Source: Piper betle (lineage: Eukaryota; Streptophyta; Magnoliopsida; Piperales; Piperaceae). From it: a stretch of 64,000 nt of DNA. Positions 906 to 64,000 of the stretch are shown in pieces. The translations under genes were made by a program, and so were the position numbers. The DNA is taken from assembly GCA_033002965.1 (NCBI GenBank), contig JAURVB010012658.1:142501-206500 (forward strand), written 5' to 3'. The notes below the pieces were generated by a model, which was not told the DNA's origin, made no database searches, and was given only the letters and a program-made list of their open reading frames with translations. The number at the start of each line of letters is the position of its first letter. The first letter of the stretch is position 1.

Positions 906-978
906 CTACTTACTAACATAATCTGCTGCCGCCGCCGGCCTCCCTCACCCTCCCCGGCCATCCCCTGACCTCCCTGCG
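906..978 (+). repeat. C-rich CCCTCC-like block, left part
   Basis: A pyrimidine-rich low-complexity tract of CCTCCC-like units. It resumes at 6911 on the other side of the inserted LTR unit, so it was one block of the hAT interior before the insertion. Confidence 0.6.
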
Positions 979-1667
979 TGTAAAACCCGTGACTTGAGTC
1001 AGGGTTTTACGTTACCGAACCAATCAGTTCAACCGTTGGTTCGAGTCGAGTCAGTTTCATGAACCGCGTACTGAGTCGAGGCCAGCCGTGAGTTATGAGC
1101 GATGAGAGTCAGGTGTACCTAAATATATGATGATAAGGTCGAGAAGATGGTGAGGAATGAGTTATCATAATATATGAAAGTATGCAGTATTTTTTTCTTT
1201 TTATATGTTTGATCGTACAAATAGTTTTAGACCGAATAACGAATTAGGACGCATTGGATTATATTCGGGTGGGTTATTAGTTATAGAGCATGCTATTTGG
1301 ATGTTGCTGTGTTTGTTTTATTTTATGGGATTTTTTCATATTTTTCTAGATTTTTTTAAGGATTTATTACGAACTAGTTATTATTTTGACTTGAGTACGA
1401 AGCGAGTCAATACTTATTTACAAGTTTGCCATTGGGGTGTTTTTCTCCCCCTTACACTTCCCCCTCCTAAAACCCTCGCCACCCACTGTGGTTGTCGCCG
1501 CCGCCGCTGCCGACGCCGCACTGCCACCGATCAACGCTGCCCCGCCTCGCCGTGCCATTGCCGTACCGCCACGACCCACCCCGGCCACCGTCTTGCCGCC
1601 ACAACGCTGGAATCGCCCCACAAGCTGTGATGCTCCCCTTATCGATTCGCCCCCGTCCGAGCCGCGT

Positions 1668-4600
1668 TGTAACACCCCAATCCGGTTTACTCTCAACCCG
1701 GACCGGAACTGTTACAAAGGATCGAACTAATCGTAAACCGATTAAGTTGGCTGACCCAAAACCTAAACGACTACGACATAACCCTCTCGACGTCTCAAGA
1801 TGGAGCACGCCGCTAATGCGCAACAATATATGAATGAGATACAAACCTTAACAGGATACTACGTAAATGTCATGATAATAACTACACACCAAAATAATTA
1901 ACATAGCAACAAAATTCATAAAACTAGGAAATAAACGGACAGAACCTCCCCTAAAAGTGCAATAAGGGGATGACCTATTAGAATACGACACAATATAATA
2001 TATATATATAAAACAATAATTTATATCACAATAGACTTCAAATCATCCATACATATTGTAATTGGGTCTAGCCCACCTGCAATCTCATACTCAGCCCATT
2101 TGATTTCTTTTCATTTCAGAATAGCACATCATTACAGCCTTTCTCAAAACATTTCCACGCATTTCTAAAATAAGGCATACAAGCCTCACAAACACATGCA
2201 TAAATACTAATATATAAATCTACGACAAAAGCCAATCACATCACATCTTACGCAAAAGTCGGCGCGGCACCAGGTATGTGTGTGCAATGCAAGCGCTACT
2301 CCTTCGTCAAAGCCAGCATACGCCATTCATCATTCTCACCTACATATAGTAGAAAAACGTCAGCAACGGGTGTCACTGGTCCGGAAATAACTAATATAAA
2401 ACTAGAACATGAGAGCAAACTCTCATGGAAAGCAAACCATCATATATATCTTCCTCAAGAACTCTCATAAGGGCAACTACAGACGAGCTGTCGAGCAGCT
2501 GACTCAACAGCATCCCGATCTATCTGGTACTGTGCCACTCACAACACTTCTTTTTCAGTACTTCACGTAAAACTTTTATCCTAAGCCCTCTTCGAACCTC
2601 CATATTACTCCTGGCCTTAAGCACGTAGACCGAGCACTCTCAGGCAGTCGCCTTTAGTACCCTTTGAACCACAAGTCCGGACATGCGCTGTACTAAACAG
2701 TACCCGTAAACCTCCACGTCCTCCGGGTGTGAGGAACTCAAACGCGGATTTGTCAGGATCCCTCGGGAATGGAACAGTCCGCTGGCACTAATCCAGAGCC
2801 CACTTTGACTAGCACGACATCCGCTCATGGTATGTGCAGTCGACTCATCTTCTCTTGTCTCACTGAAAACTCGATAAAACTATTTATAGGGTTGGGTCGG
2901 GATTTATTATAATAGGCCCGAAGGCAACTTGTGGTGGATCTTATTTTCGAAAACAAACTCGAGGGATCTCATCCTCTAGGGTTATTAATTCCGAAAACCA
3001 TCGACCAGGTGACCCGTGTTAGGTGGGGTCCAATAAATCATCCACCTGACACGTCCTACAATCAATAAATCAAATCACCGATAGAATAGAGCGATAAAAC
3101 CTAAGAAGCATGTCCTAACGAACCTGTCAGAAGCTCCAAGCGCAGTCTCGTGCCTAGACGACGAGCTCCTGCAACGAACCTACATGAACATAACTATTTA
3201 CTAACGCCCATACATATATGATGTACACCTATATCACTAATATATCCACATGCATACAATCATCTAATCAAACATGACAATCATCTCAACAATCACACTA
3301 AATCTCTAATTGTCAAGCAAGTTAATAATTTTATCATTTCATATGTTACTTATTACCTAGCACTTTTAATTCCAATTTCAAAGCATACCTATTCTAATTA
3401 GGTGACAATGGTTTAATCAATTTAATCTGTTTAACTTAATGCTAGCATGCAAAACCTAATTCACACAAATTCATAAATTAACTAGTTAACAAGCATTTAA
3501 TTAACTATTCAATGGTTTACTAACAATTTCATTACTAAGCATTCACATCATACAACACAATTTACGCTAATCATCACATGTTTATCATAATCACGATTAA
3601 TTAAACAAAAATCATGAAGTTAATAAAATTAATTCTAATATGCTACTATGACCACAACATGTATGTAATAATTCTAAAAAAAAGGGAAGAACCACCTCGC
3701 GATCGGCACTGAAATCGGTGCCGATGGACGAAGGCGGTGAAGGCGAGTTGGCGGTTTTCCGGTGACTGTGCCGGTGGTTTTCCGGCAGCTCCGGTGGTTT
3801 TCCGGTGACTGCTCCAGCAAGGCAATCGGAGGTAGGGGTTAGCACCGTCTCGGTGAGCTGGACCCAATGGTGGTGACGACAAAGGTAGCCGCAGCGGTGA
3901 TGCCACTGACGGCGGCGTCGAGTGCGGTTGGGGCGGTCGGCCGCTCCAATTAGACCCACGGTCGGCCTCGACGGCGGTGCTAAGTAGGGGGAAAGGTAGG
4001 GGAAGTTGAGGGGAGAAGCTCCGACGTCATGGCGGCGGCAGTCCGGCAGAGACGGTGGCGGAATCGTGTCGGGAACTGAGGGAAATCGAGGGAGATTTCC
4101 GACGTCGCGACGGCTGGACGGTGGCCGGGAGTGGTCGAGGCGGCAAGGCGACGGCACGGCCGGGCTGGGCGACATCGATCGGCGGCCAGGTGGTGTCGAC
4201 AGCGGTGGCAAGGTGAAGAAAAGTGTCGGGGTTTGGGGAGGAAGATGAGAAGTATAGGGTGGTGGCAAAGTTGTAAATAAGACTTGACTCGACACCGGCT
4301 CGAGTCAAGAATGATAACGGACTCGGAATAAATCCTAGAAAAATCCAAAAAAATTGGGAAAAATCCCATAAAATCAAACAAAATATCACAACATCCAAAT
4401 GACATACCGTATAACTAATAACCCACACGAATACTATCTAACGCGTCCTAAGGTGTTATTCGGCCTAAACTAATTCTACGGTCACAACATAAAAATAAAA
4501 TAAAATTATCAACTATATACTCTCATATCTACTGATAACTCAGTCTGCTGATGCATATCTGACGCTATCACCGATACTTGGGTATGCATAAACCCTCATA

Positions 4601-4721
4601 GCACGTGCGCACAGTCGGCCTCGGCCCCGCACATGTGTTCTGAAAGCTAAACCGACTCAAACTACGGTCAAACCAACCGGCTAACGACTATAAAACCCTG
4701 ACTCGAGTCGTGGATTTTACA
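1668..4721 (+). mobile_element. Solo-LTR-like unit, family A copy 2, nested in copy 1
   Basis: It starts with TGTAACACCCC at 1668 and ends with GGATTTTACA at 4721, giving 3054 bp, close to the net length of copy 1. It is inserted in the GC-rich part of copy 1 in the opposite orientation: sequence on either side (up to 1667, from 4722) is continuous with copy 1. The flanking 5-mers CGCGT and CGCGC agree at four of five positions. A TATA-like tract lies near 2880. The GC-rich stretch 3700-4250 gives several overlapping open frames on both strands, which I treat as composition artefacts. Confidence 0.75.
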
Positions 4722-5199
4722 CGCGCCGCCACCACCGTGACCCCAATGACCACCCCCTTGACCTCCCTGACATTTCCCCCTTACCTAGCGCCGCCGTCGA
4801 AGCCAGCCGTGGGCCTGATCGGAGCGACCAACCGCACCAACTGAACTCGACGCCGCCGCCACAGCTGTCCTTGCCGTCACCACCATTGGGATGAGCTCAC
4901 CGAGCCAGTGCTAACCTTACCCCCGATTGCCCCGCTAAAATAATTACCAGAAAACCGCCGGGACAGTCGTCGGAAAACCGCCGAAAGTCGCCGAAAAATT
5001 GGATTCACCCAAATTTGTTAGAAATCACCTAATTTTCCACCGAATCCCTCCGATTGAACCCTATCGAACTTCGGATGTCATACGGTGCTGAATTCGAGCC
5101 ATGAATCCCGTGAGGTATAATTTATTTTAACTTAATTATTTAAAAGTATTGATTATTAGAATTGCTTGCTAGGATTGGTAAATTGCGTATTATAATTAC

Positions 5200-5200
<1 letters not shown>

Positions 5201-5234
<34 letters not shown>
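5201..5234. repeat. TA microsatellite
   Basis: A run of TA dinucleotides inside LTR-like copy 1. Confidence 0.9.
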
Positions 5235-5238
<4 letters not shown>

Positions 5239-6910
5239 GAATTGATTAAGGATAAAATATGAAATTTGTTTGATTAAGTGGTGTTAAAAAATGGAGGCTA
5301 AGAAACTAATTAGGGTAACTAGGTAATGATCATGATCTAATGCAAACTAGCCTAAGTAGATTTGCTAGAATTAATATAGGTTGATGTGTGTTGATTGATG
5401 CGTGATGGTTGCATGTGTGATATAGGATGTATGATTGCATCATGAGCGGGCGTTAGTATTTAGTTTGGATGTGTAGATACGGAGTAAGAGTTCGCCGCCT
5501 AGGCACGAGGACATGCTTGGAGCTTCTACTAGGTCCGTTTAGGACTTGTTCTCTGTTTTACGCTATCCTATTGTGTATTTGATTTATTATGTGCAGGACG
5601 AGTTAAGTGGCATTTTATCGGATCGCACTTGACTTGGGCCATTTAGCCGACAGTTTTGTTCGGATTAATAACCCTCGAGGATGAGATCCCTCGAGTCAGT
5701 TTTCGAAATTAAGATCCACCGCAAGTTGCCTTCGGGCCTAATGTATAAATCCCAACCCAGGCCTATATATGTATAGTTTTTTGCATTTTTGGTAAGAGAT
5801 GGAATGAGGGTTACTGACGGCCACGCCTTCAGATAGGGCGTGTGCTCGGAAGAGCGGGCTCTGGAGCTAGGGAGAACCCACTTCGTTCCCGAAAGATCCG
5901 GACAACTCCACCTTTGAGTTCCTCAAACCTGGAGAAGTGTGGAGGTTTACGGGTACTGCAATGCAGCGTATGTCTAGACTTGTGGTTTAAAAGGTACTAA
6001 AGGCGACTGCCTGAGAGTGTTCGGCCTTCGTGCTCAAGGCCAGGAGTAATATGGAAGGTGTAGAGGGCAAAAAGGAATGAGATTTGATGCAAGAAGCGAT
6101 AGAGAAATGGCCAAAGTATGAGAATGAGAAAGAAAGGGGGACACTGTCGACCCGATGGCGACGGCTCCCATATGTGCCCTGATGAGAGTTCTTAAGGAAG
6201 TATATAGTTTTCATTCAACAGGAGAGTTTGCTCTCCTGTGCCAGATTGATATTAGTTATTTTTCGGGCCGGTAACACTCGTTACTGACGGTTTTTCTATA
6301 TATATGTAGGTGGGAAATGCGAGGGATGAAAGCTATCGGGACTGTGGAGGAGCAGCACAGAACCGCACACACATGTACCTGCCACTTGTAATGTATAATG
6401 ATGGTGTGTTAATGCTGTGTGAATGATAATTAGAATGTTTGCCTTGATAAATTGCTTCTTATGAGATGAGCGGATAATTGTGAATGAGGAGGGAACTTTG
6501 GAGTTCAGACTCGGCTCAGATGAAAACAAATGAGATAATGACAGAATGCCACAGTAGATTGTTATATTTATCATATTTTGATAAAATGTTTATATACCCT
6601 TGTCGTGGACAGGTTGGCCCTTATTGCACTTTTAGGGAAAATTTCATCCGTTTTTTCGTAGTAATATATATATTCTTTTGATTTCTCATTTATTATTTTG
6701 TCTTGTCTTTACTTGCATGTCATGGCATGCATGTATGACTCTGTTAGAACCCAATTGTTCTCATTCATGCATTTCATGTTTGCATCTCCATCTTGAGACA
6801 CCGAGGGTAGATCCGGGTCGGCTTAACCGAATCCAGTAGATTAGCGAACGGTTTCGTTGCCGGTGACATTTCTGGGTCGGTTCAGGGGTGAGCCGAAATG
6901 GGGTGTTACA

Positions 6911-16162: not shown

Positions 16163-17179
16163 TGGATGTTTTACTTACAGCGCTTTGTGGGGTTGTCTAT
16201 CCTACATGTCTTTGCAATTTTTAGTTAATAACCAGCTGCTTTCTCTTGTTTTCCTTTGATCCTGCAAATAATTTGGATGTATGAAAATTGTTTTGGTGGA
16301 TTTCGTTGCCAATTTATTTTGTGGTTCGGGCCCATCCAATTCCTAATTTTGATTAAAATAAATTTCATTTTAAGAAAATTAAATTTTGTTTGGCTCTATT
16401 AAGTGCAAATTACTTAAGTTTGAATGATTTATTAAATAGAATCGGTTTCGTTTGAAAGTATTTGATATAGAATCAGATTTTTTTTTGACATTGAAATGAT
16501 GAGTTCCTTATAAATAGAGGCATTCACCAGTCATCTATATCATCCAAAAGAGACAACATTTTAAGTTTTCCTGTGGAATTTGAGTGCTAAATTCCGGGGA
16601 TTTAGGTTGTGAAATCTAAATCATTTCCATCTACTACGTACTATATTAGGTACAAATCCCTAATTGTTTTTCTTTTATGTATCATTTAATGATCTACCGT
16701 TTGATTTATTATGTTGAAAAATTAAAGTTAGCTTGAGAAATTGTAAATAAGCCATATTGGCAATGTATTTTGATGTAAATTTTAAGTAAACAGTGTTTAA
16801 CTAGTAATGGGTCAAATTATATGAAGGTTGCTCTCACAGATCCAACTTTCTTTCTTATTCTTAAATGAAAAAGAAATAGTTGCTTTTATAAGGTATATTT
16901 TTTCACAAAAAGGTGTACTTCTTAGTTGTAACCCTTAAGAGATGTTACTTATTAATTTCTCTTTTTATGGTTACATGGAAGGGCTCTTTACATGTTATTT
17001 TTTCCCTTCTGTTTAAAATTTTATGTTATAGAAGAGAGCAAAATTACATAATAATATATATAGGCATGAGAGGAGATTTATATAATAGGCTTAAAGGTAA
17101 TTTACAATGGACCGTGTTTTCAAAATCAGACTTTGTGGGTCTTATTATCAAGCGTTATTAATTACAGAAATAAAATACG
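16163..17179. other. VQ gene 3' region and AT-rich intergenic DNA
   Basis: The 3' UTR of the VQ gene should lie in the first few hundred bases. The rest is AT-rich without a supported feature. Confidence 0.4.
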
Positions 17180-19515
17180 TTTAAATAACCCGTGTTAGGT
17201 AGGATTCAATAAAGCAATCACTTAACACGTCTTGCGATCTAAAAATCAAATCAACAATAGAGTATATTGATAAAAAGTAAGTAGAGTCTTAACGGGCATG
17301 TGGTCTAAGTTCCAAACGTGATGTTTTTTACAGCCAGCTTAGACTCTGAAACCTATATTAAACCCCATTACTAAACAAAATACTGACATCTCTATATGAT
17401 ACATGTTCATGGTGTGTGCTTACATCGTTAGTATAATATATGTTCATGCTGTATGCTTACATCCTCAGTATATCATAATAAAGAAGACTACTAAATAAAC
17501 ATACAACTAAATATACTGTATGTAAATCGAGATATAATAAAGAAAATAACTAATAAAATAAATAAATAAATACGTACACTCATGAATATTAGATAAGTAA
17601 TAAATACATGAAAATAATCAATACCTTAATTATAAAATAATAATAACATAACTATATAAATACACGGCTAAATACAAGTAAATATCACATATACTCGTGT
17701 TAGTAAACATATAAATAAATAAATAAATAAATACATAATCATTCAATAAATAAATAAATATTTAATTTTAATTAATCATGAATAATAATATCATAGTCAT
17801 ACAATACAAGAATACATAATTAAATACAAATAAATAATAACCTACATGCGAACAAACAAATAAATAAAAATAAATAAATAAACATAATTTAGTAAACATA
17901 AAGAAGACTAATATTAATAAGTAAATATATCATTATTAATAATAAATAATCATATAAACATACATTATAATCAATAAATATACGAATAATAAGAAATGAA
18001 TAATAATAAATAAATAAATAAATAAAATAATAAATAAATAAATAATCACAACATCTAACCATGTTAAATCATGTGAATATATGTCTAAACTAATGTAAGG
18101 GTTTTTGAATTATCAAAAACAATTGAAAATAGACGAAAATGAGCTGCACCAAACCAAACGAGCTAAACCAGATTGAGTCGAATGGGCTGAACCAACTCGG
18201 TTTGCATTAACTAGAAAATGGGCTGGGTTGATTGAGCAAAAATGAGCATGGATTGGTGGACTCAGACACAGGTTGGGGGTTGGTGGACAAGATCAGGCTG
18301 GCAGACGCAAACGCGAGCAGGTGGGCGCAACATGGGTAAACAGGCGTGAACACTGGCAAATAGGCCTCCCGCCAAAAAAATGTCAACAGCGGGGTGACTG
18401 GGGTGGCCTCTGGTTGGGATTGACGGCCCTGACGATAAGGAAGACGATGGTGGTGGCAATCAGTTGAGTTTGGCCGCTGGTTGGCTAGAAAACGGCCGAA
18501 AATGGGCAAAATCGACGTCAGGGGCAGCGGCAATCGGGACCACGATTGTGATCATGGGTGGTCTCAAAATGAAGCTCTCGATGAATGTAATTTGTATGGG
18601 AGGTCGGACTGGCTAGAGGTGGTTTGTTGGCATTGGAAAATGGCCCAATAGGGTGGCGGCGACGACGAAACTGGCTACAAAAACTTCATCCCCGGTGGCG
18701 ACTACGGCGGCGTTGGTGGTAGTGAGTGGTAGAAACAGAAAGCTGGCCACGAGATGGTTCTAGTGGTGTCAGTCCAATGGCCGGGGGCGAGCCGGAGACT
18801 TGTTGGCGATGAGCCAAAGTTGCTATGGCGCAAGGGGTGTAAATCATGAAAATCATGGGAAATCTTTGGAAATAACGTGGTGAAGATAGGGCTGATGTGG
18901 ACGGCCCAAATTTCGCCACGTGGCATGATTTGAACGTCTAATAACTCACGGCTTAGTGGGACCTACTTATGGGTATATACAATATACATATGGACGAAAA
19001 GGTCGGATCGAGGCCTTTCAAAGTCATAACTAACTCAAGTCCTAAAAGTAACTTTATAGGCAAGAATTGAGCTATGAAGGCTAAGTGGGCCTTGAATCAT
19101 CGACTCAATCAGGTGAAAACCTATGAATCAATCAAGCTGGGCCTAGAGGGACACAATCCGATGATCTAAAATCCCTATGATGCACGTAAATGAGATACCC
19201 TCAAAATCTCAAACAAATACTTAACGTTGCAATGGCCTAAATCTAGGCATACAACCCTAGCTAACTCATAAAAAATCATTTAGTATACCTCGAGTATACG
19301 ATGTTAACTCATACTCTTCTGTAGCCTATTTCAAGCTATCATATGTATGTCAGACATATTAAGCCACCATAACATGCTCGTACGACTATCTGAGCCCCAT
19401 ACTCATGATCCGAAAACTGGTCTGGCTTGATCTCACTTAAATTGACTCAAATTAGCTCAAACCGGGCAAAAATATTAATTGAGTAAAACCCTAACCAGAA
19501 GCTGGGTTTTATAGC
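17180..19515 (+). mobile_element. LTR-like family A, copy 3a (5'-truncated)
   Basis: Begins at a phrase shared with 3013 onward (ACCCGTGTTAGG) in the middle of the family unit. It runs through the AT-rich and GC-rich sections to a terminal palindrome at 19483-19513 like that of copies 1 and 2. The 5' part of the unit is missing. The inner AT section has expanded into AAATA-like repeats (17500-18050). Confidence 0.6.
17690..18050. repeat. AAATA/AATA low-complexity array
   Basis: Dense irregular repeats of AATA, AAATA and TAAATAAA units inside LTR-like copy 3a. Confidence 0.75.
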
Positions 19516-21560
19516 TGACCTTCCTGTTGAATGAAAACACCATTACTCTTCCTCATAGAACTCTCCATAAGAGTAATAACTAGAAACTGTTAACCTAGTG
19601 CGACAACATCCATTTTCTATCTCATCCTCATTCATTGGCCACTTTAAACTATCCCTTGCATGGGAAAATCATTATCTTTCCTTTCATCCTTCTACATCCT
19701 CTGTACCACTCTTGGTCTTAAGTATAGAGGCCTAGTACTCTTAGGAATGTGCATCCAATACCCATTGAAACCATAAATTTAGACATGCGCTACATAGCAA
19801 TACCTGTAAAACTCTACACTTCTCCTGGTTTGAGGAATTCAAAAGTGGGTTATCAGGATCCCTTGGGAATGGAATGGTTGCTTACCAACTTCAGAGCCCG
19901 CTTTGACAAACACACGCCTATCTTAAGACGCGATCGTCGGTTTTACCCATCTCATATCAATGAAAACGCAAAAGCTACATATACCTATGCCTAGGTAGGG
20001 ATTTTAATATAATGGGTGAGCTTGATCTGAGTCCCGAAAATAAACTCAAGGGATCTCATCCTCAAAGGTTATTAATCCGAAAATTTCATACAACTAGATG
20101 GCCAGTGCGGAGTTGGATATAATAAATCTATCACTCAACATGTTCGCTTACATGTTAAAATAAAACACGACAGAGTATAGAAGTCAAACCAGAAATGAGT
20201 CATAAATGGACCTGGTAGAAGCTCAATCGTGTTTACGCGCCAATGCGGCAAACTCCTACTCTTTACCTACATGTCAAACTAAAAGCTAATGTCCGCTTAT
20301 GATGGATTCACATATCCTATACCACACACACATCAAAACATACTGACATCAATCCCATATAAGTTTTCCCTACATTACGTTGCATTAGGTTATGATACTT
20401 ACTTAGTTTACCTAATTAGTTCCTTAGCGTTTGTTTTAATATAATTTAATCAAGTAATTCATATTTTTATTTACAATAAAAATATCTAACACATTAATTC
20501 ATCAATCCTAACATGTTGTGCTAATAATTATCACCTTTAAGTAATTAAATTAGAGTTAATTATACCTCATGTCATCGACAATCAGCGATGGTTAGGGTTT
20601 CGTCATGTGGCTCGAGACTCAAATTCGGCACTTGGCGGCGTCCGAAGTTCAATTGGGTTTGACTGGATGAATTTGATGGAAGATCCGGTGAATTTCATCT
20701 ATCCAACAACTTTTGGCAACTTTCCGGCGATTTCTGGTGACTTTTCTTGGAAGGCAATCGGGGTTATGGGTCGGCACAGGTTCAGTGAGTTCTACCTAAT
20801 GGTGGTGGCAGTGAGGACGACAACAGTGGCAAAGACCGTCGGCCACGGCGACTAGCCGGCTGGGATCGGTTGATCATCCGATTGGACCTCAGCGGCGGCA
20901 ATGGGTATGAGAGAAATGGTCGGGGGTCGAAGGGAGTGGAGTCGGTGGTGGAATGGCGTCGTGAAGCGTGGCGTGATCTCGCAGCGATTCGGTGTCGTGG
21001 AGAGTGAGCAGTGGCTGGGGGCGCTCAGGGCTGCACGATGACAAAACGACGGGGCTCGGCGGTGTTGATCGACGGTGGTGCAGCGATCAGAGGCGGCGTA
21101 GGCAGCAAATACCTGGGCGGGGGTGGGTGGCGATCGGGGTTTGGGGGAGAAAAGGCCAGGGAGAGTTCTCGCGGGCAATCTCGTAAACAAAAGTTGACTC
21201 GACTTCGACTCAAATAAAAAATAATAACTAATTTGTAATAAATCCCAAAAAAATACAAAAAATAGGGGGAAATCTCATAAAATAACAAGCCATTCAAACT
21301 ACCTTAGATTGCATTCTAATGCATTATTTGGCTTAAAGATAATTTTACAATCAAATACATGAAAAAAATTGCATACTGTCATAAACTTTGATAACTCATT
21401 TCTCATCATCTTTATGATATTATCATCATATACTCAGGTATACCTGACTTTCATTACTCATAACTCACGGCTGACCTCGACTCAACACGCGATTCATGAA
21501 ACTTACTCGACTCGAACCGATGATTGAACAGATTGGTTCACTGATGTAAAACTTTGACTT
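19516..21560 (+). mobile_element. LTR-like family A, copy 3b (5'-truncated)
   Basis: Starts at CTTCCTGTTGAATGAAAAC, matching the same phrase at about 63519 in copy 4. It then passes through the shared ACATGCGCT.., CCCGAAAATAA and GC-rich sections and ends near 21555 with GATGTAAAAC. Head-to-tail arrangement with copy 3a suggests recombination or partial deletion between neighbouring units. Confidence 0.58.
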
Positions 21561-22253
21561 CAATCACATGGTGTTTAAAGAGGATCATCGAGCTTCATTG
21601 GTTACTGCTATTGGGACTCACTATTGGGTGTGATTGAGCAGTGCCGAGACTCCGAGTGATGGTGATCAAACATCGGTTCCGAGCATAGCTACCGGCAGTA
21701 CACTATCAAATATCAACGAAGCAAGGTTGAGTAGTACTGAGCGTATTGACAACTAAATATCGAGCGTACCAAGAACTAGTGAACGAGTAGTATCGGGAAG
21801 CCTACATGAAAGTGCTAGGTGTGAGCGAGCAGTAAACATTGGTATACCAGGATTTGGTTGAGGTTTCCTATTGACACTAGTAATTCTAGCGGTAAAGGAT
21901 TTATCAGTATTCTTGGGTGAGTTGTGTGTTGGTGACTTAGGGATTTTCTTGGATGACTTGGACACGGACAAAGCTTTAAGGGAGAAGTTTAGATGGACAC
22001 GTGGACATAGAGGACACAAATTTTGAGGTGAGCTAGGATTTGTGATCAAGTTGGTTGTGGTGGAGTCGGAACCAAGACCAAACCCTAAAAGTGCGATTGC
22101 ATATTAGGGTTTGAGGTTTGGTTGACTTGGGGAGTTTTGTTGAGTCAAGGAACTCAACCACATGGCCAAGATGCACCAAGGGAGAGTTTGGTATTGAATG
22201 ACGTGATGGAAAGAGTTAGAGTAGAACTTTACTTTCTCATTAGCCGACTTGAT
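21561..22253. other. Unassigned DNA before the Copia relic
   Basis: No coding or repeat feature can be supported. It is probably older retroelement-derived sequence. Confidence 0.35.
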
Positions 22254-58337: not shown

Positions 58338-59263
58338 TCAAGATTGATAAACATCAGGAAGGCGAAGTCCAACACTAGCAGCAGAATTGGAGAGAGTCCT
58401 CATCATCTCATCTGTTCTGTCTACACCAATGTTATAAGAGAAAAGAAGCCCTGTACACAAATTCCAGTTGAACTTTTTAGACTCAAAAAATTAAGCTTAA
58501 AGTAAATTTCGTCCTACAAATTAAAGATCACTTCCTTATTTCCCTATATATAAATTCCATGCTACAGATCACTTCCATATTTCCCTATATCCTTAAAAAA
58601 ATTAAGCTTAAAGTAAATTTCGTTCTACAAATTAAAGATCACTTCCCTATTTCCTTATATATAAATTTCATGCTACAAATTAAGGTTCACTTCATTATTT
58701 CCTTATATTCTTTAAGCGTTAACCATAAACACAAGTGCATAAACATGCATTATTTTATTGCCAAATAAAGATATAGAAGAATACTGGTCGAGCAAAATCC
58801 CCTCTAAAATTATTTTATTTCTTATTGTAATAACTAATATGCACACATAATCTTCTAACTGAAACCTAAAGTGATTCATGTTCTCGGCATAGCTTAATGA
58901 CATGTTGAAAGAAACATCGTTATGTTGGTGGAGTGGATTCACTTTTGAAAATTTCATGTTTTTAATTCATCCGAGGGTCAAAAAGCACAAGTTTAAACAA
59001 CAAATATTAAAGTATTCTATCTGACTGCGAGCCAGGCCGCATACCTTGTGATGTTGCACGCCGTTGACCTGATAAGTGTAGTACCGGGCGAGCTTCAACT
59101 TGTACTTAGCAATTTCTGGATCATTCAGATTTAGATTCTTGCGGAATTCCCCAGTTACATAACTTTTGAAATGAGCTTTGCTGCCATCAACACCAATATG
59201 CTTACTAATGGCTTTTAGAAGACGACGATAAATAGTCAAACCTTCTGCAGCTTCCAAGCTCAT
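58338..59263 (-). CDS. LYR-motif protein, LYRM9-like
   Basis: Small mitochondrial-type LYR protein; the family binds acyl-carrier protein and assists assembly of respiratory or Fe-S proteins, but the role of this member is not established. Two exons, 59263-59045 and 58450-58338, about 110 residues. The start MSLEAAEGLTIYRRLLKAI carries the LYR-like motif IYRRLLK at residues 11-17. KAHFKSYVTGEFRKN follows, and exon 2 reads LLFSYNIGVDRTDEM...SAASVGLRLPDVYQS. This matches the plant LYRM9-like protein at full length. Joining the obvious GT and AG sites leaves the frame one base short; a fourth G at the acceptor-side run 58449-58451 would repair it. The intron contains a tandem repeat. An LTR retroelement sits 316 bp upstream of the ATG. 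Confidence 0.83.
58486..58710. repeat. Tandem repeat, two ~110-bp units in the LYR gene intron
   Basis: Two units beginning AAAAAATTAAGCTTAAAGTA. Each contains two diverged half-units with the phrase ACAAATTAAAGATCACTTCC, so the block looks like an older dimer that duplicated. Confidence 0.82.
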
Positions 59264-59579
59264 GTCAAAGACTTATTTTGGTCCAAACAACTAAACAGTA
59301 ATCTGTATCCATCAACAAAAAGCAATACATACAAAATTAGTACTTCAAACCCAATATTAAATCTCAATAAACTCATACCAATCAGTAATATAAATACAAG
59401 AAGAATAATCATAACGAAGTTGTGAAAAAATATCCACAAAACAAACAACTTCACACACATTGGTTAAGCCTACAACTCGAACCATCACGACTGTGGCAAA
59501 AATTTTTGACCCACCAACCAGAGAAAACAACTTAAATGAACATTTATAGAAATAGCAGGATTTAACCCACAAGTAGAGT

Positions 59580-60012
59580 GGTAGGATTTTCCTCACCAAG
59601 GTCGACGATGACCTCTTTCCCCTTAGTTCCTTGCTTGTTCCCCTGCTTGGCTGGTGCCATGGAGGAGACGATTGGCCTGGAATCTGAAGGGAGTTGGAGA
59701 AATAGTTGAGATGATGGAGGATGGGACAGTGGTTAAACCCTGCTCCCAGGAAGGATCTCCCTAGAAAATAGGAAGAAGAACAAAGAACAAAGATAAGAAG
59801 AAAACAAAGATTTAATTCATCAAAAGTCATGTCCTTTACAATCAGTCTCTCCCCCTTATATAGCCACACTTCCTAGTTTTCCCCCATTACAATTTATTCT
59901 CATTATTCACCTCGAATTCATCCTTACAATTTATTCTCATTATTCACCTCGAATTCATGGATCTCGCAATGCCCCGTAACGCCCTTTCGTTCTACTCACT
60001 TTATTCATACCA
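59580..60012 (-). repeat. 3' LTR of the AspAT-carrying retroelement
   Basis: 433 bp, nearly identical to the 5' LTR; a short duplication CTGGA-like near 59675 accounts for most of the length difference. It duplicates the promoter and gag start codon and points toward the LYR gene on the same strand. Confidence 0.9.
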
Positions 60013-61603
60013 TTACCCTCCCCTTTACAAGAACCTTGTCCCCAAGGTTGTACAGATTACGAATTACGAGGAAGTATCCGCCATTGGAGTAGTATAAGGT
60101 AAGAAATTGGTACAGGAATAACAGCTGGCCAAGGCGCGACGAAATGCCATGCTTCAAAGCCAATGCATTAATCCCAGCAGCAATAGACGTGCACTTGTTT
60201 GATCCCAAGTGGCCCCCAATCTGCTGAATGCCACAAGTACCAAGCTTGGCCTTAGAAGTTAAAGATGCAGAAATAACAGCAATAACAAGAACAGAGGGCA
60301 ATGTTTGCTCCCAGGATAGAGGAGACCCTAGTTTCTCAAGGTTTTCTCTAAAAGCAGACCGCATTCCAATTATCCGGTCAGCCATGTCCTTCACCTCCTT
60401 GAGCCACAAACTCTTCAGGTCAGGATCACCAAGTATTGTAGAGACAATAAGAGCACCATGAATTGGTGGATTGCTATACATAGGCCTAGCTAATTGCTGC
60501 AACTGAATCTTCACAGCTACAGCTTTCTTGTCATCTTCACAGAGAACACTGAGGCAACCTACTCTTTGACCATAAAGGCCCATATTTGTGGCATATGATT
60601 GAGCGCATCCAATTAAATGGCCATCTTCAAGAAAGATACGAATGGCTTTTGCATCTCTCTCCGGATCACCACTTGCAAAACCTTGGTATGCCATGTCAAA
60701 GAAGGCAAAATGATTCTTCACCTTGAACTGGTATGACATCTCTCTCCACTGTTCTTCTGTTGGATCTACTCCAGTAGGATTGTGTGCACATGCATGAAGC
60801 AAGAAGAAGGAACCATTTGGTGCATTCTTGATATCATCCATCATTGAAGCAAAATCTAGCCCTCTTGTCTCCGGATGATAGTAATGGAAAGTTCTTTGGG
60901 GCACCTGAGCATCTCTCCAAATATTATGATGGTTGGCCCAAGTTGGCACTGGTATGTAGATCTGGGAATCAGGAATGAAGCGCTTCTGAAAATCAGCAAA
61001 GAGTCGGCATGCACCAGTTCCAGAAAGTGCTTGCACCGCTGCAATTCTTTTATCCTTAATTAGGTGAGAGTTATCCCCATATGCCAGCTTCAATGTTTCC
61101 TCTACCATTGCTAGACTCCCACCCATCGGATGATACTCCATATTCTTATGTCCGGCGATCCGCCTCTCGGCTTCCCGGACGCACTCAAAAACAACCGGCT
61201 TCCCATCGTCATCCCGGTACGTTTGCGGAATCCTTCCTCCCGACATCCTTGCCTGTTCTTCCCTTTGGGTGTTTCTTCGACTATCTTGCCATTGATCATC
61301 AATATCCAACCCAACAGGAACCCTCATATGAGGTGTCCCAACTCCCTCACGATTATCCAGATTCCCCCTATCCTCAACCCTCGATTGCAGTAACAATTCG
61401 AGTTTTGCAGAAATTTCAGCAACAGCAGTAATCAAGTAATCCTGAATCTGTTTAATGTGAGATAATTCAATCGAGTTTGGTGATGGATTCGTACCTCCCT
61501 CGCCTTGCTCTGATGCCAAATTGGTAGGATTTTCCTCACCAAGGTCGACGATGACCTCTTTCCCCTTAGTTCCTTGCTTGTTCCCCTGCTTGGCTGGTGC
61601 CAT
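60005..61603 (-). CDS. Chimeric gag-aspartate aminotransferase open frame of the retroelement
   Basis: 532 codons from the ATG at 61603 (an in-frame ATG at 61621 is also possible). The frame is open further up to 61807, but that part overlaps the LTR TATA box. Part 1 (about 128 residues) is gag-like: MAPAKQGNKQGTKGKEVIVD, then a coiled-coil-like stretch IQDYLITAVAEISAKLELLL. Part 2 (61219-60308, 304 residues) is plant mitochondrial-type aspartate aminotransferase from YRDDDGKPVVFECVREAE to LGSPLSWE, without any intron. It keeps HACAHNPTGVD, FDMAYQGFASGD and GLYGQRVG. The PLP-binding lysine of SYAKNMGLYG is threonine here (codon at 60589-60587, AAA to ACA). The N-terminal targeting region and C-terminal domain with the substrate-binding arginine are missing. 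Part 3 (about 100 residues) is 3' retroelement sequence ending NLGDKVLVKG. It cannot be an active transaminase; whether it is translated is unknown. Confidence 0.9.
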   Translation of the reverse strand: MAPAKQGNKQGTKGKEVIVDLGEENPTNLASEQGEGGTNPSPNSIELSHIKQIQDYLITAVAEISAKLELLLQSRVEDRGNLDNREGVGTPHMRVPVGLDIDDQWQDSRRNTQREEQARMSGGRIPQTYRDDDGKPVVFECVREAERRIAGHKNMEYHPMGGSLAMVEETLKLAYGDNSHLIKDKRIAAVQALSGTGACRLFADFQKRFIPDSQIYIPVPTWANHHNIWRDAQVPQRTFHYYHPETRGLDFASMMDDIKNAPNGSFFLLHACAHNPTGVDPTEEQWREMSYQFKVKNHFAFFDMAYQGFASGDPERDAKAIRIFLEDGHLIGCAQSYATNMGLYGQRVGCLSVLCEDDKKAVAVKIQLQQLARPMYSNPPIHGALIVSTILGDPDLKSLWLKEVKDMADRIIGMRSAFRENLEKLGSPLSWEQTLPSVLVIAVISASLTSKAKLGTCGIQQIGGHLGSNKCTSIAAGINALALKHGISSRLGQLLFLYQFLTLYYSNGGYFLVIRNLYNLGDKVLVKGRVMV

Positions 61604-61950
61604 GGAGGAGACGATTGGCATCTGAAGGGAGTTGGAGAAATGGTTGAGATGATGGAGGATGGGACAGTGGTTAAACCCTGCTCCCAGGAAGGATCTCCCT
61701 AGAAAATAGGAAGAAGAACAAAGAACAAAGATAAGAAGAAAACAAAGATTTAATTCATCAAAAGTCATGTCCTTTACAATCAGTCTCTCCCCCTTATATA
61801 GCCACACTTCCTAGTTTTCCCCCATTACAATTTATTCTCATTATTCACCTCGAATTCATCCTTACAATTTATTCTCATTATTCACCTCGAATTCATGGAT
61901 CTCGCAATGCCCCGTAACGCCCTTTCGTTCTACTCACTTTATTCATACCA
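61522..61950 (-). repeat. 5' LTR of the AspAT-carrying retroelement
   Basis: 429 bp, TGGTATG...CCTACCA on the minus strand. It contains a TATA box at 61794-61800 and the first codons of gag, so the reading frame crosses from LTR into the primer-site region. Confidence 0.9.
61794..61800 (-). promoter_or_regulatory. LTR promoter TATA box
   Basis: TATATAA in the context GGCTATATAAGGGGG on the minus strand, about 190 bases before the probable gag ATG. The equivalent box in the 3' LTR lies near 59859-59865. Confidence 0.7.
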
Positions 61951-62906
61951 TAGAGAAAGCCTCCATAAAGTAAAAGAAGAAAACGTAATGAAGAATAGAT
62001 TTGCATTTCCACAATAGTATCTCCGATGCCAAATATTTCTTGGAGTCTGTATCCCGCATTTCATCATACAACTAATGTGCAATAAATCTACAGGTGCCCT
62101 AGTGTCACAGGGTCACACTTAGGGTCAAATTTTCTGCCCAAAAGCTCCCCGTGCGGTGTATTTCCCTCCTGAAAATACCCAGCCCTCACCTCATACGCAG
62201 CAAATGACCGCTACACAAAGCGCACACTGATCGCAATGCAGGCACCAACACACCCGGTACCGGTATCTGATCAGAGTCAAGGCTTATACCAACACCCGGC
62301 TATCGCTCACCGCTACCTACTCGGACAAACTCACGATCACCAAGTCTCGGCACTACGCGTCCCTCATACCGGTCACCCACTTCCTCCCGGTACCGACTAG
62401 ACCTCGGAATCACCAGTCCAGTCTTTGGTAGCCAAATACGACGCGACACCACAAGATTACAGGAACTCTTCCCAACCTCTATTCCAACAATATGAATATA
62501 AGAATACAAGTATCTACACCCTAGACTACTTGCAAGTCATGGACATGCAAACCCCACGACTTGACCTCTCGACCCTCACTCGACAGGCCTAACCCTTCGA
62601 CCCTAGGAGCACAAAGACATCGAACAATACAAGAAGAAACCCTGGCATAAGAGCAGAACCTGACAACTCCGACAGTCCCCCCTTACTCGACCAAGGTGGC
62701 TCTCCTCCACCGAGAGCCCACTCCTCCTTTTCTCTGCTCTTGTTGTTCTCCCACTCTCTCTGCTCTCCACAAAGAATGGCGACCCCTTTTTATAGAAGTC
62801 CCTGGCTAATGTGCAGCACGTCACCACTTTGATCCTCACCGTCCAAGGCTCTGATCAACGGCTCCAATTTGGCCAGCAATGACATCGACTCCATCACCGT
62901 TGGATC
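61951..62906. other. Unassigned DNA upstream of the retroelement
   Basis: Before the retroelement inserted, this joined directly to 59579, so its first part is probably distal promoter of the LYR gene. 62090-62890 is C-rich with GGTACCGG-like phrases and resembles LTR or retroelement sequence, but no partner copy occurs in the window. Confidence 0.4.
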
Positions 62907-64000
62907 TGTAACACCCCGTTTCGGCTCACCCGTGAACCGACCCGGAAATGTCACCGGCGACCGAACCGTTCGCTAATCTACTGGGTTCGGTTAAGCCGAC
63001 CCGGATTTGCCCTCGGCGTCTCAAGATGGAGATGCAAACATGAAATGCATGGATGAGATGTGTGGGTTCTAACATAGTCCTACATGCATGCTATGATGTA
63101 CAAGCAAAGACAAGACAAAATAATAAATGAAAAACCAAAAGAAAATATATACTATTTTATAAAAATACGGTAACACATAATAATCTACCCTGACATTCAA
63201 CCATTATCTCATTCATTTTTACCTGAGCCGAGTCTGTACTCCAAGGCTCCCTACTCATTCATATTTATCAGTTCGTTTCATAACAAGTAATTCACTCAAG
63301 CAAACACATCAAAATTATCGTTTACATAACAATAACACACCATCATATACGTTACACGCGGCAGGTACATGTGTGCGCGGTTCCGTGCTGCTCCTCCGCA
63401 GTCCCGACAGCTTTCATCCTTCGCATTTCTCACCTACATATATATAGAAAAACCGTCAGTAACGAGTGTTACCAGCCCGGAAAATAACTAATATAAAACT
63501 GGCACAGGAGAGCAAACTCTCCTGTTGAATGAAAACCATATACTTCCTCAAGAACTCTCATCAGGGCACATACGGGAGCCGTCGCCCTCGGGTCGACAGC
63601 GTCCCCCTATCTTTCACATTCTCATGCCTCGGCCATTTCTCTATTGCTTCTCGCGTCAAATCTCGTTCCTTTCTGCCCTCTGCACCTTCCATATTACTCC
63701 TGGCCTTGAGCACGAAGGCCGAGTACTCTCAGGCAGTCGCCTTCAGTACCCTTTGAAACCACAAGTCTAGACATGCGCTGCAATGCAGTACCCGTGAACC
63801 TCCACACTTCTCCGGGTTTGAGGAACTCAAAGGTGGAGTTGTCAGGATCCCTCGAGAATGAAACGGCCCGCACACCATTCCAGAGCCCACTGTCGACACA
63901 CACGTGCCCACTCGCGTAGCACGGTAGTCGGATTTCCCTCATTCAGTCTCTCACAAAAACACGAAAACTATACATATATATAGGTCTGGGTTGGGATTTA
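62907..64000 (+). mobile_element. LTR-like family A, copy 4 (runs off the window)
   Basis: Starts TGTAACACCCCGTTTCGG at 62907 and follows copy 1 (minus strand of 6910-5750) closely. Shared phrases include TCTCCTGTTGAATGAAAACC, CTCCTGGCCTTGAGCACGAAGG and AACCTCCACACTTCTCC. It ends the window near a TATATATAGG promoter-like motif at about 63975. It is the best-preserved copy of the 5' half, and small open frames at 63525-63770 are shared with copy 1 as a consequence of this similarity. Confidence 0.75.

What the first reader, a model, noticed from the sequence alone, without database searches (positions are those of the whole stretch)
59580..61950. LTR retroelement that captured and fused a host aspartate aminotransferase cDNA
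An LTR-bounded unit with a perfect 5-bp duplication carries 304 codons of intronless mitochondrial-type aspartate aminotransferase, in frame between a gag-like start and the retroelement 3' end. Plant aspartate aminotransferase genes have many introns, so the insert came from spliced mRNA by template switching during reverse transcription. Gene capture by plant LTR elements is known (for example Bs1 in maize), but I know of no described aspartate aminotransferase case. Nearly identical LTRs point to a recent insertion.
Basis: partly seen in the sequence, partly recalled or inferred. Interest (0 to 1): 0.88.

Follow-up and report, generated by a model that had tools for sequence, protein, structure and literature searches.

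The report
Retrotransposon spreading a stolen host enzyme gene
In this plant genome a small LTR retrotransposon carries an intron-free, truncated piece of the host's mitochondrial aspartate aminotransferase gene, likely picked up from spliced mRNA by template switching during reverse transcription, and near-identical copies sit at about 33 places, so that the host gene, the likely recipient element and both junctions can still be recognised.

Summary
In detail: 59579-61950 is a complete LTR element with a perfect TAGAG duplication, and 304 intronless aminotransferase codons are fused in frame to a gag leader. It is one member of a young family. The assembly (527 Mb, unnamed plant) holds 34 full-length copies of the 912-nt insert at about 33 loci, plus the parental gene, where six introns interrupt the same stretch. 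A pol-less GAG-protease element with the same leader and 3' tail is the likely recipient. Gene and recipient share 3 nt at one junction and 5 nt at the other, as expected of two template switches. The five copies with "type B" LTRs are nearest the gene; type A copies, the window's among them, carry mosaics of type B and type A leader sequence, so the captured unit later exchanged LTRs. The insert looks like a passenger: synonymous, replacement and stop changes do not differ significantly from neutral expectation. 18 of 32 comparable copies, the window's included, have lost the cofactor lysine, and both ends of the enzyme are missing. Gene capture by plant LTR elements is known (Bs1, maize surveys, TRIMs); this is a new, unusually complete and amplified case. 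Neither an autonomous helper nor RNA evidence was obtained.

The parts
59574..59578 (.). target-site duplication TAGAG, left copy
61951..61955 (.). target-site duplication TAGAG, right copy
61522..61950 (-). 5' LTR, type A, 429 nt, TGGTA...TACCA ends
59579..60012 (-). 3' LTR, type A, 434 nt; differs from the 5' LTR by 1 transition and a 5-nt indel
61503..61518 (-). probable primer-binding site TGGCATCAGAGCAAGG, 3 nt after the 5' LTR (likeness to plant initiator-Met tRNA sites is recalled, not tested)
   Evidence: sequence
60016..60026 (-). polypurine tract AAAGGGGAGGG, 3 nt before the 3' LTR
   Evidence: sequence
60005..61603 (-). fused open frame, 532 aa: gag leader (starting inside the LTR) - AspAT - element 3' end, stop included
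61220..61521 (-). 5' internal region / gag leader; in the window a mosaic of type A and type B GAG-element sequence
60308..61219 (-). captured mitochondrial aspartate aminotransferase sequence without introns, 304 codons, parts of 7 exons; cofactor lysine replaced by Thr (SYAT)
60013..60307 (-). element 3' tail shared with pol-less GAG-protease elements

Best explanation
This is a non-autonomous LTR retrotransposon, likely of Ty3/gypsy type, that carries 304 intron-free codons of the host's mitochondrial aspartate aminotransferase, likely acquired when reverse transcriptase switched from a pol-less GAG-protease element's RNA to the enzyme's spliced mRNA and back, and that would be moved by proteins supplied from other elements. 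Shown by calls: the LTR element; the fused frame; absence of the six introns; the parental gene; GAG-protease elements with the same 5' leader and 3' tail; 3-nt (AGC) and 5-nt (GAGCA) overlaps at the junctions; 34 full-length copies; type B copies nearest the gene; A/B mosaics in the leader; loss of the lysine in 18 of 32 copies; a change spectrum not significantly different from neutral. Inferred: that the switches happened during minus-strand synthesis in a mixed particle; that the LTR exchange also came from co-packaged RNAs; that a helper supplies reverse transcriptase and integrase; that the aminotransferase part is a passenger without enzymatic role.
For: Own genome: 34 full-length copies of the insert at 97-100% and one gene with seven exon blocks. 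Six introns (1485, 111, 95, 124, 178, 268 bp as computed) lie in the gene and none in the insert. In 12 of 12 GAG-protease copies looked at (L066-L077) the leader runs on past the capture point without AspAT, and the shared tail starts at the other junction. Overlaps: GCAAGC/GGAGCGTACC and TGGGAGCA/CGAGCAAACA. Differences from the gene over 912 sites: type B copies 6, 7, 8, 10 and 12; type A copies 12-21 without L041; window 18. Perfect 5-bp duplications in 22 of 34 copies (21 loci) and 0-5 substitutions in the 23 type A LTR pairs that aligned cleanly. Of the 34 copies only L018/L019 share flanks with each other (at least one flank piece over 150 nt for 34 of 34, both for 29). GAG elements with type A LTRs exist and the leader mosaics are seen.
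Against: No autonomous helper was identified; the searches meant to find it did not complete. No RNA evidence. Overlaps of 3 and 5 nt are short and do not by themselves prove template switching. 12 of 34 copies have no verified target-site duplication (contig ends, truncation, a tandem, three mismatches, and the five type B copies). One type B copy (L034, 12 differences) is no nearer the gene than the nearest type A copies. An intronless genomic AspAT copy could have been the template instead of the mRNA; the matches outside the gene all lie in this element family, but that search scored only 40 of 41 candidates and is a lower bound.
Confidence: 0.87

Rival explanations
1. A LINE-made processed pseudogene of the AspAT gene formed first, and the element took it up at the DNA level by gene conversion or by insertion and deletion.
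For: It would also explain the missing introns; that LINEs can make retrocopies is recalled.
Against: Of the 45 matches none is an intronless copy outside the element family, as read. The insert lacks both ends of the coding sequence and shows no poly(A), and it stands in place of about 1.7 kb of gag-protease between points with short overlaps.
Confidence: 0.08
2. The fused gag-AspAT protein has been domesticated or is useful to the element, and is kept by selection.
For: The insert is open in 28 of 34 copies and the fusion runs from the leader start into the tail in 21 of 34. Synonymous changes are above expectation though not significantly: 20 against 14.4 among all 63 changes (P 0.065), 17 against 13.1 among the 58 polymorphic ones (P 0.14), 10 against 6.6 among the 29 shared ones (P 0.09).
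Against: Replacement changes (39 against 45.0, P 0.06) and stops (4 against 3.7) do not depart significantly from neutrality, and the comparison with the gene includes changes on the constrained gene's own branch. The cofactor lysine is lost in 18 of 32 copies and the next residue changed in 7; the largest subgroup is the one without the lysine. Stretches equivalent to both ends of the enzyme are missing.
Confidence: 0.06
3. The copy number and LTR mosaics are assembly artefacts from collapsed or mis-joined repeats.
For: The assembly is in 11,211 contigs; L018 and L019 are the same site on two contigs; L041-L043 are full of indels; three copies have unequal flanking 5-mers.
Against: 21 loci carry a perfect 5-bp duplication, 20 different sequences, and apart from L018/L019 no flanks match between copies. 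Several mosaic patterns recur in more than one copy.
Confidence: 0.04

Closest known systems
Bs1 retroelement of maize
   Same: An LTR element that carries pieces of host genes, with a chimeric frame (PMC13317346, section 4 read; that Bs1 lacks a working pol is recalled).
   Different: Bs1 holds parts of three genes (ATPase, xylan endohydrolase, beta-1,3-glucanase); its chimeric gene is said there to be transcribed, translated and potentially involved in reproduction. Here one gene, many young copies, a likely recipient element and the gene identified, and no clear sign of selection.
Gene-fragment-bearing LTR retrotransposons of maize B73 (PMC2774510, passages read)
   Same: Same class of event: 425 intact elements from at least 189 independent captures; their role is stated to be unknown.
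   Different: That averages about two elements per capture; here a single capture has 34 full-length copies. The passages read do not treat junction overlaps or recipient elements.
TRIM elements with captured exons (PMC4717578, passages read)
   Same: Small non-autonomous LTR elements with exon-only inserts and 5-bp TSDs; 30 elements of 7 subfamilies, nearly all with two or more copies.
   Different: TRIMs are miniature elements without gag (recalled); here a gag leader is fused in frame to 304 codons and the likely recipient is a GAG-protease element.
TR-GAG elements (name and definition recalled; the phrase occurs in 18 papers, seen as a listing only)
   Same: The likely recipient has LTRs and gag, and no reverse transcriptase or integrase was seen in the parts read.
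   Different: It also keeps a protease domain; whether it meets the formal definition was not tested.
BARE-2 and Veju (PMC13317346, section 4 read)
   Same: Abnormal template switching brought foreign sequence into an LTR element or its LTR.
   Different: There the partner was another retroelement or an unknown DNA; here first a host mRNA, later another element subtype.

Membership tests
LTR retrotransposon | two near-identical direct LTRs with TG...CA ends | tested here: met
LTR retrotransposon | target-site duplication | tested here: met
   TAGAG in the window; 22 of 34 copies verified
LTR retrotransposon | primer-binding site and polypurine tract in place | tested here: inconclusive
   Both are seen in the sequence; the matching tRNA was recalled, not searched
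Ty3/gypsy superfamily (through the likely recipient) | Ty3-type capsid and protease domains | tested here: met
   Retrotrans_gag, Ty3_capsid, RVP_2 in L057 and L058; these domains are absent from the window copy itself
Ty3/gypsy superfamily (through the likely recipient) | order protease-RT-RNaseH-integrase | tested here: inconclusive
   pol is missing from the copies seen; searches for an autonomous relative did not complete
gene-capturing LTR element | host coding sequence without introns between the LTRs, with the parental gene present | tested here: met
aspartate aminotransferase (active enzyme) | PLP-binding lysine (role recalled) and both ends of the chain | tested here: not met
   SYAT instead of SYAK in the window; the match covers chain residues 37-346 of 407
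TRIM | no coding gag (definition recalled) | tested here: not met
   gag leader frame kept and fused

The most novel reading that the evidence does not exclude
The stolen sequence shields the element: 598 of the 892 21-base words of the window's insert still match the parental aminotransferase gene perfectly, so small-RNA silencing of this family would also strike an essential host mRNA, and the host must tolerate it. This would explain why this pol-less unit rose to dozens of copies, with nothing but the sequence identity, not the protein, being useful.
Probability: 0.06. Interest if true: 0.85.

Novelty: new member of a known kind. Interest (0 to 1): 0.5.

Why it matters
In the surveys read here, captures by LTR elements average only a few copies and the mechanism is inferred. 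Here the source gene, a likely recipient element, both junctions, basal copies, later LTR exchanges and the loss of the catalytic residue can all be read from one genome. That makes the template-switching model of gene capture, and the question of what lets such a unit amplify, directly testable with long-read RNA and particle cDNA.

Tried and rejected
Helper element: searches with gag-leader DNA, a polypurine-region pattern and the GAG-protease protein did not complete, so the helper stays unidentified. Homologues of the gag leader in the protein collection: 96 candidates, none with E <= 0.001. Pfam on leader and tail: no family. A second captured gene in the tail was considered and dropped, because the same tail ends GAG-protease elements. 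Selection on the insert was tested and not significantly supported (32 of 34 copies used, L032 and L041 dropped for indels). The tree still contained L041, whose misaligned indels inflate its branch, and separates the rest poorly; I use the site table and counts, not the tree. A regex for flanks picked wrong LTR starts in many copies; TSDs come. LTR pairs not used in the 0-5 count: L041 (17 of 427), L042 (33 of 401, a degraded relative outside the 34), L037 (5' LTR mostly deleted) and the type B pairs, whose LTR was taken one base too long: L030 3 of 397, L033 11 of 402, L034 13 of 402; L028 and L031 have rearranged or cut LTRs. In one search the last columns, at the junction, are misaligned and mean nothing.

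Literature: search listings. AspAT with 'LTR retrotransposon' and 'captured' gave 3 papers, none about this by title and start of abstract; 'aminotransferase' with 'LTR retrotransposon' and 'gene capture' gave 0. That no AspAT case is in print is claimed only for those two searches of that library. The 2010 Bs1 paper was not held.

Full report
What is there. The window holds a 2372-bp LTR element at 59579-61950 with its coding strand minus. The LTRs (429 and 434 nt) differ by one transition and a 5-nt indel; TAGAG flanks both ends. After the 5' LTR comes ATT and then TGGCATCAGAGCAAGG, which resembles the initiator-Met tRNA sites of plant elements (recalled); AAAGGGGAGGG lies 3 nt before the 3' LTR. 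A frame starts at an ATG inside the LTR (61603) and runs 532 codons, the stop ending at 60005. Its middle, 60308-61219, is aspartate aminotransferase (Pfam E 3.5e-69; best solved matches are mitochondrial enzymes; plant enzymes, many named mitochondrial, at up to 88% identity among the 120 hits listed of 7865).

Source gene. Search of the window's own assembly (G000, 527 Mb, 11,211 contigs) found one split match, C1139 (L046), with seven exon blocks at 95-99%. The six introns (1485, 111, 95, 124, 178 and 268 bp as computed; intron 4 reads GT...AG after a one-base shift) are missing from the insert. The window insert differs from the joined exons at 18 of 912 sites, without gaps. The insert is therefore copied from spliced RNA, directly or through an intermediate.

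Family. One search lists 45 matches: 34 full-length copies (97-100%, window included), two degraded relatives (L042, L043), two partial copies (L044, L045) and seven exon blocks of the gene. The 5' junction pattern occurs 36 times with at most 2 mismatches (the 34 and the two partial copies) and 0 times reversed. I fetched all 34 plus the degraded and partial copies. Most show LTR-leader-AspAT-tail-LTR. At least one flank piece over 150 nt was available for 34 of 34 copies and both for 29; between copies only L018 and L019 share flanks, hence about 33 loci. L023 counts with less certainty, as its one flank piece follows a tandem unit. L034 and L041 have flanks that resemble each other within the locus. 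Of 34 copies, 22 (21 loci) have a perfect 5-bp duplication, 20 different sequences. The other 12 were cut by contig ends (L012, L039), truncated (L020), in a tandem at a contig end (L023), mismatched (L024, L038, L041), or of type B with unresolved ends (five). In 23 copies both type A LTRs aligned cleanly: 10 pairs have 0 substitutions, 8 have 1, five have 3-5; excluded pairs are listed under Tried and rejected.

Likely recipient. The 3' tail also occurs without AspAT: 12 of the 40 scored matches. These (L048, L049 and ten more) carry gag, a zinc-knuckle-like motif seen by eye and a protease, followed directly by the tail; no reverse transcriptase or integrase was seen in the 1.4-1.5 kb read upstream of the tail (Pfam on two of them). 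Their leader runs straight through the capture point in 12 of 12 (L066-L077). Comparing insert, gene and recipient gives overlaps of AGC at the 5' junction and GAGCA at the 3' junction. Minus-strand synthesis switching from element RNA to AspAT mRNA at GAGCA and back at AGC would give this product (inference).

Order of events. Five copies (L028, L030, L031, L033, L034) have type B LTRs, about 68% like the window's over part of the length; L028's are rearranged and L031's 3' LTR is cut. They differ from the gene at 6, 7, 8, 10 and 12 of 912 sites, against 12-21 for type A copies without L041. They keep the gene state at codon 11 and the lysine, and their leader follows the type B element's. 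Type A copies have a leader that is a patchwork of type B and type A sequence, from almost pure B (L023, L029) to almost pure A (L018), the window between (19 of 34 copies compared, against one GAG element per type). GAG elements with type A LTRs exist: five contigs show LTR pairs 2255-2256 bp apart without AspAT, and the one sampled, C10052, contains gag 92.7% like the type B element over 601 bases. So capture most likely happened in a type B element, and exchanges with type A elements followed, by the differing patterns more than once (inference). Whether by co-packaging or gene conversion is not decided.

Function. In 32 inserts (L032 and L041 dropped for indels) 63 distinct changes against the gene are 20 synonymous, 39 replacement, 4 stop; the neutral expectation is 14.4, 45.0, 3.7, and the departures are not significant (P 0.065 and 0.06 for the first two). 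The slight synonymous excess leaves room for weak constraint. The lysine of the SYAK motif, which aligns with lysine in the solved enzymes (its role in binding PLP is recalled), is threonine in 18 of 32, and the next residue is changed in 7. The insert lacks about 36 residues at the start and about 60 at the end relative to the 407-residue chain. An active enzyme is not expected. That the insert is still open in 28 of 34 copies and the fusion runs on in 21 of 34 is explained by youth (inference).

Comparison. Capture of host exons by plant LTR elements is established: Bs1 (PMC13317346, section 4 read), 425 elements from at least 189 captures in maize (PMC2774510, passages read), TRIMs with exon-only inserts (PMC4717578, passages read). 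The present family is a new member of that kind. What stands out is the amplification of one capture, the gene and likely recipient side by side, and LTR exchange afterwards.

Noticed in passing
window 58970-59263 (minus): A LYR-family protein frame (Complex1_LYR, E 9e-9) starts about 316 bp downstream of the element's 3' LTR on the same strand, so the insertion may lie in that gene's promoter region.
   Followed up: partly
L048, L049, L056-L065: A GAG-protease family without pol; ten copies are 98.6-99.9% identical to L048 over about 1.4 kb, so it is itself non-autonomous and recently amplified.
   Followed up: partly
L011, L015, L018, L019: LTR pairs with 0-1 substitutions but 17, 37, 20 and 20 gap columns; the LTR holds a tandem-like repeat of about 37 nt (by eye). 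The two LTRs of one insertion should be equal at birth.
   Followed up: no
L023 (C9912:1-4100): Tandem arrangement LTR-internal-LTR-leader.
   Followed up: no
L018 and L019 (C10907, C4367): The same insertion with the same flanks on two contigs: probable duplicate haplotype in the assembly.
   Followed up: partly
L041, L042, L043: Indel-rich relatives of the insert with 16-17 stops each: older copies or poor sequence.
   Followed up: no
window 61503-61603: The coding frame begins inside the LTR and reads through the probable primer-binding site.
   Followed up: partly
L028 (C8912:32900-38900): A type B copy whose LTRs are rearranged: only the first 140 bases match directly, with an inverted 91-base piece beyond the 3' one.
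   Followed up: partly
window 976-6910, 17040-21567 and 62907-64000: Diverged direct and inverted repeats of about 250-950 bp (67-89% identity) near both window ends.
   Followed up: no
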